In this document: piece by piece, positions 2,751 through 60,535 of the stretch | How positions within the stretch are numbered: position 1 is the first letter of the stretch | How the letters are laid out: each line of letters begins with the position of its first letter | DNA from: Candidatus Sulfotelmatobacter sp. | Lineage (GTDB): Bacteria; Vulcanimicrobiota; Vulcanimicrobiia; Vulcanimicrobiales; Vulcanimicrobiaceae | DNA length: 64,000 nt | Assembly (NCBI GenBank): GCA_035504415.1 | Contig: DATJRY010000007.1 | Location: forward strand, 62,001 to 126,000 | Reading direction: 5' to 3' | Made by a program: the position numbers and the translations under genes | The notes under the pieces: generated by a model | Told to the model about the DNA's origin: nothing | The model's input: the letters and a program-made list of their open reading frames with translations, nothing else | Database searches by the model: none

Positions 2751-3925
2751 GCGACGAGGTGGTCGTGGTCGGGGCCGGCCCGGCCGGCAGCGCGACGGCG
2801 TTGCTGCTGGCGCGGGCGGGCGCGCGCGTGCGCGTCCTGGAGCGCGCGCAGTTTCCGCGCCGCAAGGTGTGCGGCGAGTACCTCAACGCCGGCGCGCTGG
2901 CGGCGCTCGACCGGCTGGGCGTCGGCGAGGCGGCCCGCGCCGCCGGCGCGCCGCTGCACGGCGTGCGGCTCGTCGCGCCCGGCGCCGCGCCGGTCGCGCT
3001 GCGGTTCGCGCAGCCGGCACTGGCGTGCGCGCGCGATCGCTTGGACGCGCTGCTGCTCGACGCCGCACGCGCGGCCGGCGCGCAGGTCGAACGCGCGCGC
3101 GTCGACGAGCTGCTGCACGCGGACGGCCGCTGTGCGGGCGTGCGCGCGCGCGACGAACGCGGCGAGGTCGTCGAGCGCCGGGCGCGGATCGTCGTCGGCG
3201 CCGACGGGACCGGCTCGCTGGTCGCGCGCCGGTTGGGCCTCGCGCGGCCGTCGCGCCGCGGCGCACGCTGGGCGGTCGGCGGTCACTACGCCGGCTTCGG
3301 CGCGCTGGACGGGTGCGTCGAGATGTACGTCGGCGGCGGCGCGTACTTCGCGCTCAACCCGCTCGACGCCGATGCGGCCAACGTGATGGTGGTCGTACCG
3401 CGGAACCGGCTGGCCCGGTGGGCCGACGACCTCGACGCCGGCGTCGGCGCCGCCGCCGCGGCGCTGGCGCACGGCGCGCGCTCCTTCGCCGGCACCACGC
3501 GGCTCGGCGCCCGGGTGAGCGTCGGCCCGCTGGCGCACGACGTGCGCGCGGTCGCCGCGCCGGGCGCGCTTCTGGCGGGCGACGCGGCCGGATTCCTGGA
3601 CCCGTTCACCGGACAAGGCGTCGCGCTGGCGCTGCTCGACGCGGAGCGCGCGGCCGAGACGGCGCTGCGCGCGTTGCGCGCGCCGGCGGACGAGCCGCGT
3701 GCGTTCGCCGCCTACGATCGCGACCGGCGCGCGGACCGGCGCCGGCGACGCGGCCTGTGCCGCGCGGTCGCGCTGCTGGTCGACGTGCCGCCGCTCGCGC
3801 GGCGCGCCTCGGCGCGGCTGGCGCGTTCGCCCGAGTTGGGCGCGGCGCTGCTCGACGCGCTGGCGGGGACCCTCGCTCCGCGGCGCGCGTTCGGGCCGGG
3901 CGTGCTCGTGCGACTGCTGGCATGA
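2747..3925 (+). CDS. FAD-dependent oxidoreductase, geranylgeranyl-reductase-like
   Basis: A 392-residue flavoprotein of the p-hydroxybenzoate hydroxylase fold. The N-terminal dinucleotide motif is VVVGAGPAGSATALLLARAG (about 5-24). The sequence RRKVCGEYLNAGAL with its CGE follows, as in geranylgeranyl reductases and related lipid-modifying enzymes. The second FAD motif is LLAGDAAGFLDPFTGQGVALAL near residue 285. Such enzymes reduce isoprenoid double bonds or oxidise aromatic or polyketide substrates. Position between the methyltransferase and an SRPBCC/ketosynthase pair suggests a tailoring step on the operon's product (inference). The ATG overlaps the preceding stop and its own stop overlaps the next ATG. 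The C-terminal part is unusually Arg/Ala-rich. Confidence 0.85.
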   Translation: MSDEVVVVGAGPAGSATALLLARAGARVRVLERAQFPRRKVCGEYLNAGALAALDRLGVGEAARAAGAPLHGVRLVAPGAAPVALRFAQPALACARDRLDALLLDAARAAGAQVERARVDELLHADGRCAGVRARDERGEVVERRARIVVGADGTGSLVARRLGLARPSRRGARWAVGGHYAGFGALDGCVEMYVGGGAYFALNPLDADAANVMVVVPRNRLARWADDLDAGVGAAAAALAHGARSFAGTTRLGARVSVGPLAHDVRAVAAPGALLAGDAAGFLDPFTGQGVALALLDAERAAETALRALRAPADEPRAFAAYDRDRRADRRRRRGLCRAVALLVDVPPLARRASARLARSPELGAALLDALAGTLAPRRAFGPGVLVRLLA

Positions 3926-59242: not shown

Positions 59243-60184
59243 GTGACTCGTGCGCTCGTCTCCATCGGCACCAACTCGACGCGGCTCCTGATCCTCGGCG
59301 AGGGCGACGCGCCGGTGGTCGCCGAGTCACGCGGGACCCGCCTGGGCGCCGGGATCGGGACGACCGGGTCGATCGACCTGGTGGCGAAGATCCGCACCCT
59401 GGCTGCCGTCGACGAGTACGTCGGCATCGCGCGCGCCAACGGCGTGACCGCGGTCGACGCGATCGCGACCAGCGTGCTGCGCCGCGCGAGCGACGGTGAG
59501 GCCTTCGGCCGCGAGGTCGAGCACCGAATCGGTGTCGTGCCGCGCGTGCTCACGGGCGAAGAAGAAGCGACCTACTCGTTCCTCGGCGCGACCGCGCAGC
59601 GCCCGGGCGCCGAGTCAGTGGCCGTGCTCGACGTCGGCGGCGGCAGCACCGAGATCGCCGTCGACACCCCGGCGCACGCGCGCAGCACCGGTGCCGTCGG
59701 CTTGAGCATGTCGCTCGAGATCGGCGCCGTGCGACTCTCGGAACGCCATCCCGCGCTGCTCGGCCAAACCGCGCTCGCGCCGGCCGCGCGCCGTTCGCTC
59801 GAGATCGAAGCACGCTCGTACGCGCTCGGCGTCCTCACGCCGCTCTCCGAGGCACGCGGTTTCGGCGAGTTGATCGCCGTCGGCGGCACGGTCTTCACGG
59901 CCGCCGCGATGATCGCCGACGGCGCCCGCGACGGCGCGCCGATGACCCGCGCCGATTGCGCCGGGCTCATCGACGCGCTCCTCTCACGCGACCTCGAGGC
60001 CCGCAAGCAGATGCCGCACATCCGTCCGCAGCGCGCCGACATCTTACCGGCCGGCCTGATCGTCGTCGACGAAGCCTGCCGCATGCTCGACGTCGACCAC
60101 TTCACGGTCAGCGAAGCGGACCTGCTCTACGGTTACCTCACATCGAGGTCGTTCCGTTCCGAGCCATTCGTCGCCAAGGGGTAG
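59243..60184 (+). CDS. Short Ppx/GppA-family phosphatase
   Basis: A 313-residue ASKHA-fold protein: VSIGTNSTRLLILGEG at the N terminus, TGEEEATYSFLGA, VLDVGGGSTEIAVD, IAVGGTVFTAAAMI and MPHIRPQRADILPAGLIVVDE, the core signature of the Ppx/GppA family. It lacks the C-terminal HD domain of the paralogue at 14915, as in the short exopolyphosphatases of actinobacteria. It should cleave polyphosphate or (p)ppGpp. GTG 59243 follows AAGGG by about 8 nt. It precedes the tRNA-Leu gene by 29 bp. Confidence 0.9.
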   Translation: MTRALVSIGTNSTRLLILGEGDAPVVAESRGTRLGAGIGTTGSIDLVAKIRTLAAVDEYVGIARANGVTAVDAIATSVLRRASDGEAFGREVEHRIGVVPRVLTGEEEATYSFLGATAQRPGAESVAVLDVGGGSTEIAVDTPAHARSTGAVGLSMSLEIGAVRLSERHPALLGQTALAPAARRSLEIEARSYALGVLTPLSEARGFGELIAVGGTVFTAAAMIADGARDGAPMTRADCAGLIDALLSRDLEARKQMPHIRPQRADILPAGLIVVDEACRMLDVDHFTVSEADLLYGYLTSRSFRSEPFVAKG

Positions 60185-60213: not shown

Positions 60214-60535
60214 GGGATGATGGTGGAATAGGCAGACACAGCAGACTTACCAAATGTGAGCCGACCGCACGGAAACGGCGGCCGGGATGCGCTCAAAGTC
60301 GGTGAACTCGTCGCGCGGGCACGACAACGCCGAGCCAAGCCGCGAAGCCGCATGTCGGCGACGTGGAAGGTGTAGAGACTGGACGGGCGCGACCTACCGG
60401 TTCGTACGCGAACCCACGGCCAAGGCACAGTCCAGACCACGAACGGTTTCGACGAGAAAGCCGGCGGCGAAAGCCGAAGTGGTACGAAAATCTGCAGCCC
60501 GCAAGGGCGTCCGGGTTCGAGCCCCGGTCATCCCA
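60214..60535 (+). tRNA. tRNA-Leu (UAA), interrupted by a group I intron
   Basis: Exon 1 is 60214-60248 and exon 2 is 60487-60535. Joined, they give an 84-nt class II tRNA. The acceptor stem is GGGATGA/TCATCCC with discriminator A, the anticodon stem GCAGA-CTTAAAA-TCTGC carries the anticodon TAA, the variable arm is AGCCCGCAAGGGCGT and the T arm CCGGG-TTCGAGC-CCCGG. The split lies after the first anticodon base (T34), the site used by the group I introns of cyanobacterial tRNA-Leu(UAA). The 3' CCA is not encoded (CGT follows the A). The tRNA is unreadable without removing the insert, so splicing is required if this is the only Leu-UAA tRNA. Confidence 0.95.
60249..60486 (+). ncRNA. Group I self-splicing intron (probably subgroup IC3) in tRNA-Leu
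   Basis: A 238-nt intron. It obeys the group I boundary rule: the 5' exon ends in T (60248) and the intron ends in G (60486). Conserved core pieces match the cyanobacterial tRNA-Leu intron in order: TGTGAGCC near the start, CTCAAAGTC, GAGCCAAGCC (P4 region), GGAAGGTGTAGAGACT with GACGGG (P6-P7 region), and ACAGTCC, which pairs with AGACT for P7/P3. It carries no open reading frame, so splicing should be autocatalytic with guanosine. Its presence outside cyanobacteria is notable if the lineage assignment is right. Confidence 0.93.

What the first reader, a model, noticed from the sequence alone, without database searches (positions are those of the whole stretch)
60214..60535. Group I intron in a tRNA-Leu(UAA) of an apparently non-cyanobacterial genome
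The tRNA is split after anticodon base 34 by a 238-nt insert with group I boundary rules and core motifs in the order of the cyanobacterial/plastid tRNA-Leu intron. That intron is a classic ancient marker of the cyanobacterial lineage; similar tRNA introns elsewhere are rare. If the host is Eremiobacterota or a similar Terrabacteria lineage, this bears on whether the intron was inherited vertically or transferred.
Basis: partly seen in the sequence, partly recalled or inferred. Interest (0 to 1): 0.82.

Follow-up and report, generated by a model that had tools for sequence, protein, structure and literature searches.

The report
Self-splicing intron in Vulcanimicrobiota tRNA-Leu(UAA)
The only gene for one leucine tRNA in this soil bacterium is interrupted by a small RNA that should cut itself out; this intron type was best known from cyanobacteria and chloroplasts, but proves to be widespread in this phylum, in many other bacteria and in phages.

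Summary
Window 60214-60535 (+) is a tRNA-Leu(UAA) gene split after U34 by a 238-nt intron (60249-60486). Rfam's group I model and ARAGORN both miss it. Even so, comparison with relatives shows a group IC3 intron: 49 genomes of the class share its core; on a 46-sequence alignment the core structure, including the P3/P7 pseudoknot, is 94% paired with two-sided changes in 30 of 47 pairs; and empty alleles with exactly abutting exons occur in relatives. One empty relative matches the chromosome length of Vulcanimicrobium alpinus, the phylum's first cultivated member. The host genome is in that genus (Vulcanimicrobiota, formerly Eremiobacterota). In 117 genomes of its class, 49 carry only the split gene, 41 only an intact one, none both; so the split gene appears to be the sole tRNA-Leu(UAA) and should have to splice. 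The introns form one clade that tracks the host tree, with about 16 losses. Its relation to cyanobacterial introns is unresolved. Splicing was not tested.

The parts
60214..60248 (+). 5' exon of tRNA-Leu(UAA), 35 nt, ending ...GCAGACTT (U34)
   Evidence: 91-100% identical to 5' halves of relatives of the genus, abuts the 3' exon directly in empty alleles
60249..60486 (+). group IC3 intron, 238 nt, last base G (terminal guanosine)
   Evidence: orthologous introns in 49 genomes of the class
60487..60535 (+). 3' exon of tRNA-Leu(UAA), 49 nt, AAAATCTGC...CATCCCA; no CCA encoded
60258..60260 (+). internal guide (GAG) pairing with exon CUU; G.U pair at the 5' splice site (P1)
   Evidence: GAGCC within the first 22 nt of all 49 introns, exon U-1 in all
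60261..60285 (+). P2 hairpin with GAAA loop
   Evidence: 10 of 10 pairs with two-sided changes, 79.6% of cells paired
60289..60294 (+). P3 5' strand (partner 60385-60390)
   Evidence: 100% paired in 46 sequences, 4 of 6 pairs with two-sided changes
60299..60304 (+). P4 5' strand (partner 60328-60333)
   Evidence: 100% paired, two of six pairs vary, one with two-sided changes
60377..60381 (+). P7 5' strand, guanosine-binding helix (partner 60428-60432); crosses P3
   Evidence: 100% paired; last pair G-C, A-U or U-A
60392..60420 (+). P8 hairpin
   Evidence: 98.6% of proximal cells paired
60436..60483 (+). P9 (60436-60440 with 60479-60483) enclosing P9b hairpin 60465-60476 with GAAA loop
   Evidence: P9 97.4% and P9b 100% paired, 4 of 5 and 4 of 4 pairs with two-sided changes
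59252..60184 (+). Ppx/GppA-like phosphatase gene just upstream; neighbour of the tRNA in most intron-bearing and most empty genomes of the family (name from sequence reading, not from a profile search)

Best explanation
The insert is a group IC3 self-splicing intron in the only tRNA-Leu(UAA) gene of a Vulcanimicrobium-genus bacterium. In the pre-tRNA the 5' exon end CUU pairs with GAG of the intron (P1, with a G.U pair at the cleavage site). The P3-P9 core, including the P3/P7 pseudoknot, should bind a guanosine in P7, which attacks after U34. The freed exon end then attacks after the terminal G, joining the exons into CUUAAAA and releasing the intron. The intron encodes no endonuclease, so it has no visible means of homing. 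It entered the tRNA-Leu(UAA) gene at or before the common ancestor of the studied families of class Vulcanimicrobiia, has been inherited mostly with its host, and has been lost many times. In the window's family the losses are exact; in family f3 the whole tRNA gene differs. Shown here: anatomy, homology, covariation, exact empty alleles, mutual exclusion of split and intact genes, congruence with the host tree. Inferred: splicing itself, the direction of change (gain or loss), and loss by recombination with a spliced copy or an intronless allele.
For: Boundaries and empty alleles. Covariation 94.2% paired against 26-40% for slid controls; 349 two-sided cells against 121.5 shuffled and 49-88 slid. 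RF00028 matches homologues above its cut-off and a sister intron weakly. Split and intact genes exclude each other: 49 split, 41 intact, 0 both of 117 genomes in the class, 17.2 expected, Fisher p 1e-13. Same locus beside the Ppx/GppA-like gene in most split and empty genomes of the window's family. The introns are one clade, 100/98 support; intron and RpoB distances correlate, Mantel rho 0.30 overall (1 of 2000 permutations as high) and 0.50 within the family (0 of 2000). RpoB tree with at least 16 changes of state; 16 losses if gained once. UUA codons occur in window genes (2 of 1596 sampled codons).
Against: No RNA-level evidence of splicing. Rfam's group I model misses the window copy. P2 and P6a are poorly aligned in some rows, and P5 and P10 were not modelled. 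In family f3, intron-bearing genes have a different tRNA body from empty ones (GATGATGGTGRAA against GCRCGTGGCGRAA), so there the change is gene replacement or lateral transfer of the whole gene rather than exact loss. 27 of 117 genomes in the class showed neither form, so the patterns or assemblies miss some genes. Presence is no more clustered on the host tree than in shuffles, which frequent exchange would also explain.
Confidence: 0.93

Rival explanations
1. It is a group I intron, but the patchy pattern comes mainly from repeated lateral gain (by phage, plasmid or recombination between relatives) rather than from old presence and loss.
For: Presence is unclustered on the RpoB tree, 18 changes against a shuffled mean of 18.2. 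Viral contigs and over 1200 plasmids carry tRNA-Leu(UAA) introns of this type. In family f3 the intron-bearing tRNA bodies resemble those of family f1 rather than those of intronless f3 genomes.
Against: All Vulcanimicrobiota introns are one clade apart from phage and proteobacterial ones. Intron distances follow host distances. The host-like topology with f3 outside is not rejected (p-AU 0.48). No intron in the set is long enough to encode an endonuclease (188-358 nt).
Confidence: 0.25
2. It is the cyanobacterial tRNA-Leu(UAA) intron lineage, inherited from a common ancestor with Cyanobacteriota or transferred directly from them.
For: A tree holding the two together is not rejected (p-AU 0.485).
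Against: Intron-free tRNA-Leu(UAA) in 28 of 32 genomes of other classes of the phylum and an intron in none. J6/7 reads GTGTAGAG as in proteobacterial and phage introns, not GTGCAGAG as in the remembered cyanobacterial one. The stem branch of the clade is long (1.09 changes per site).
Confidence: 0.08
3. It is a decayed, non-splicing insertion that has inactivated the gene.
For: UUA codons are rare in this 70% GC genome (2 of 1596 codons sampled), so loss of the tRNA might be tolerated; the tRNA and intron scanners miss it.
Against: P1 with its wobble and the terminal G are kept in all 49 introns, the catalytic core is kept and helices covary. The exons are strongly conserved in relatives, and no genome carries a spare intact copy.
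Confidence: 0.03

Closest known systems
[quoted passage not shown] Xu 1990; Paquin 1997)
   Same: Same tRNA and insertion point (after U34), same order of core helices, similar size, no open reading frame
   Different: Different phylum; J6/7 GTGTAGAG instead of GTGCAGAG (cyanobacterial sequence from memory); deep separate clade; frequent absence in close relatives; authentic cyanobacterial sequences could not be fetched here
tRNA-Leu(UAA) introns of Alphaproteobacteria, Acidobacteriota, Bacteroidota and Chloroflexota found here, and reported in Beggiatoa BOGUAY and Thiomargarita (PMC4853749)
   Same: Same tRNA and site, same core, same P9b GAAA hairpin
   Different: J2/3 GTAGAA and GAGTG in most, against GGGATG and GAGCC in Vulcanimicrobiota; other P3 and P7 pairs; separate clades
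Azoarcus tRNA-Ile(CAU) and Agrobacterium/Bartonella tRNA-Arg(CCU) introns, subgroup IC3
   Same: Same subgroup; [quoted passage not shown]
   Different: Other tRNA and other guide sequence
Group I introns on IMG/VR viral contigs in tRNA-Leu(UAA) and other genes
   Same: Same site in many, same core, over the Rfam cut-off
   Different: AT-rich, own clades, in viral tRNA arrays or coding genes

Membership tests
Group I introns | P3/P7 pseudoknot and P4, P6, P8, P9 helices supported by covariation | tested here: met
   P3 and P7 100% paired in 46 sequences with two-sided changes; 0 of 500 shuffles as good; slides 26-40% paired
Group I introns | U at the end of the 5' exon paired with G of the guide sequence; G as last intron base | tested here: met
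   CUU/GAG and terminal G in 49 of 49
Group I introns | Match to Rfam RF00028 | tested here: not met
   none for the window copy; sister intron L022 27 bits (E 0.006), homologues 47-63 bits. This is a tool threshold rather than a biological feature; Nawrocki 2018 (PMC6125680) judged this one model unlikely to capture the subtypes
Group I introns | Guanosine-dependent self-splicing | not testable with these tools
   needs RNA
Subgroup IC3 tRNA introns | Anticodon-loop site, no P5abc domain, P9 hairpins, IC3 core strings | tested here: met
   188-358 nt; IC3 consensus compared with an Azoarcus sequence from memory
tRNA-Leu(UAA) introns | Inserted after U34 of tRNA-Leu(UAA) | tested here: met
   empty alleles give the joined tRNA exactly
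Cyanobacterial tRNA-Leu(UAA) intron lineage | Shares a clade with cyanobacterial introns to the exclusion of others | tested here: inconclusive
   p-AU 0.485, only one cyanobacterial sequence and that from memory
Mobile group I introns | Encodes a homing endonuclease | tested here: not met
   188-358 nt; longest stop-free run in the window intron 79 codons

The most novel reading that the evidence does not exclude
Bacterial tRNA-Leu(UAA) group I introns, the cyanobacterial one included, are drawn from a large reservoir of tRNA introns carried by phages and plasmids, so that the same site after U34 has been colonised repeatedly across phyla and the cyanobacterial intron is one case of many.
Probability: 0.25. 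Interest if true: 0.72.

Novelty: new member of a known kind. Interest (0 to 1): 0.5.

Why it matters
The tRNA-Leu(UAA) intron is a textbook marker of the cyanobacterial and plastid line; [quoted passage not shown] Here it occurs as an apparently old clade in another phylum, where split and intact genes exclude each other, and a cultivated relative appears to carry the exact empty allele. That makes gain, loss and fitness cost testable. It also shows that ARAGORN and the Rfam group I model miss an essential-looking tRNA gene here, and probably in the 48 other genomes of the phylum that carry it.

Tried and rejected
Single-sequence folding of the intron gave no signal over shuffles (z -0.01), as expected for a GC-rich RNA with a pseudoknot; covariation was used instead. 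A first RpoB tree used wrong-strand frames in GC-rich genomes and was replaced. Core-motif hits in G068 and G095 were not tRNA introns, and the one in G047 was a tRNA-fMet intron; all three were removed from the counts. f2 genomes yielded neither form of the tRNA with the patterns used. An ybhL match (14 bits, cut-off 50) is noise.

Full report
OBSERVATION. The sequence at 60214-60535 reads as a tRNA-Leu(UAA) interrupted after U34 by 238 nt. Joined, the halves give a GGGATGA/TCATCCC acceptor stem, a GCAGA/TCTGC anticodon stem and the loop CTTAAAA. ARAGORN finds only a tRNA-Met in the window. Rfam finds no group I intron there at any threshold tried. The same Rfam search on homologues gave RF00028 at 62.6 and 57.8 bits on two viral contigs, 57.2 in a betaproteobacterium, 48.1 in a Bacteroidota species, 47.2 in an acidobacterium, 34.3 in Rhodovulum and 27 bits (E 0.006) in a sister intron of the window's family. 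Nawrocki et al. 2018 (PMC6125680) likewise judged RF00028 unlikely to capture the group I subtypes. The negative is a limit of the model. tRNAscan-SE is also stated not to detect group I introns (PMC8450103).

HOST. The window lies in a 4.17-Mb, 95.7% complete genome. Three named records, L245 (Vulcanimicrobiota bacterium), L224 and L251 (Ca. Eremiobacterota), are identical over 1.0-3.3 kb to G014, G074 and G125, all of the window's family. G005, of the window's genus, is one contig of 3,508,363 bp, the exact length published for the Vulcanimicrobium alpinus WC8-2 chromosome (PMC9758169).

BOUNDARIES AND EMPTY SITES. A blastn search of 60 relatives found the split gene in 24 genomes including the window's own. 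In 15 loci of 14 relatives the two exons abut exactly. The V. alpinus-like genome has the 5' exon identical and the 3' exon at 98% with nothing between them. Most genomes of the window's family with either form have the tRNA beside a homologue of the Ppx/GppA-like gene that precedes it in the window, so the two forms are alleles of one locus.

STRUCTURE. On an alignment of 46 tRNA-Leu(UAA) introns (24 Vulcanimicrobiota, 16 other bacterial, 6 viral) a structure written by hand from the window sequence (P2, P3, P4, P6, P6a, P7, P8, P9, P9b) was counted. 94.2% of cells form standard pairs, against 78.4% after shuffling and 26-40% when one strand is slid; 30 of 47 pairs have two-sided changes; the covariation score is 0.451 against 0.162 and 0.05-0.09. 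P3 and P7, which cross, are both 100% paired with two-sided changes. P1 (CUU with GAG) and the terminal G are present in all 49 Vulcanimicrobiota introns. Those introns are 188-358 nt (median 226) and too short for an endonuclease gene.

IS IT THE ONLY COPY? In 149 genomes of the phylum, a pattern for the intact tRNA-Leu(UAA) and one for the intron core gave complementary sets. After removing three hits shown not to be tRNA-Leu introns (G068, G095, and a tRNA-fMet intron in G047), 49 genomes have the split gene, 69 an intact one and none both. In the window's class the numbers are 49, 41 and 0 of 117 (17.2 expected together, Fisher p 1e-13). The window's genome has no intact copy. The split gene therefore seems to be the working one, which implies that it splices. 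27 genomes of the class showed neither form. The Fisher test treats genomes as independent, which related genomes are not; the point that matters is the absence of any genome with both.

HISTORY. In a tree of 143 introns the Vulcanimicrobiota introns are one clade (100/98) on a long stem. Within the phylum, intron distances follow RpoB distances (Mantel rho 0.30, 1 of 2000 permutations as high; within the family 0.50, 0 of 2000), and a host-like topology is not rejected (p-AU 0.48). Presence itself is scattered on the RpoB tree, with at least 16 changes, or 16 losses if gained once. In other classes of the phylum only intact genes were found (28 of 32 genomes). The simplest reading is a gain at or before the common ancestor of families f1 and f3, then inheritance with many losses. 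In f3 there is a twist: intron-bearing and empty genes have different tRNA bodies, so gene replacement or transfer of the whole gene took part there.

WIDER DISTRIBUTION. A script confirmed matching 5' and 3' tRNA-Leu(UAA) exons in most of these, though not in all: its strict search found no 5' exon for 32 of 176 loci over all collections. A blastn search found similar DNA on over 1200 plasmids; the one read in full carries an alphaproteobacterial-type tRNA-Leu(UAA) with intron. Hence the claim that such introns are rare outside cyanobacteria does not hold. Interrupted tRNA-Leu(UAA) in Beggiatoa and Thiomargarita was already in print (PMC4853749); a gammaproteobacterial case by Vepritskiy et al. 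2002 is recalled from memory, not checked.

CYANOBACTERIAL LINK. Not resolved. No authentic cyanobacterial intron could be fetched; an Anabaena sequence from memory joins or leaves the clade without penalty (p-AU 0.485). Shared GAGCC and GGATG strings point one way and the GTGTAG core the other.

MECHANISM AND VERDICT. By homology to IC3 introns that self-splice in vitro and in vivo (for example the Bartonella tRNA-Arg intron, PMC7717549), this is most likely a functional self-splicing intron. It is a new member of a known kind, in a phylum where none of the papers found here reports it.

Noticed in passing
L281 about 1400-1760 (Gordonia phage Daredevil NC_048021.1, near 41.8-42.1 kb); same in L118: Unannotated tRNA gene, read as tRNA-Lys(UUU), split by an IC3-type group I intron in an isolated phage. 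A 2014 review states that all phage introns then known lay in protein-coding genes (PMC3984707).
   Followed up: partly
   Followed up: partly
L280 about 2990-3320 (plasmid pCTX-M3, NC_004464.2 near 61.8-62.1 kb): An alphaproteobacterial-type tRNA-Leu(UAA) with its group I intron lies unannotated near aac(3)-IId; matches of similar identity occur on over 1200, mostly enterobacterial, plasmids.
   Followed up: partly
L393 and L391 (genomes G047 and G054, family f3): A second group I intron in Vulcanimicrobiota, in the anticodon loop of what reads as initiator tRNA-Met(CAU).
   Followed up: partly
L396 (G113) and L327 (G108): Introns enlarged to 358 and 346 nt; in G113 the insert lies in the P6 region and no endonuclease gene is likely at that size.
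   Followed up: no
f2 genomes G037-G040: Neither a split nor an intact tRNA-Leu(UAA) was found with the patterns used.
   Followed up: partly
L273 (Chloroflexota, titled Litorilinea aerophila): A 327-nt tRNA-Leu(UAA) intron that falls outside the proteobacterial and Vulcanimicrobiota clades in the tree.
   Followed up: no
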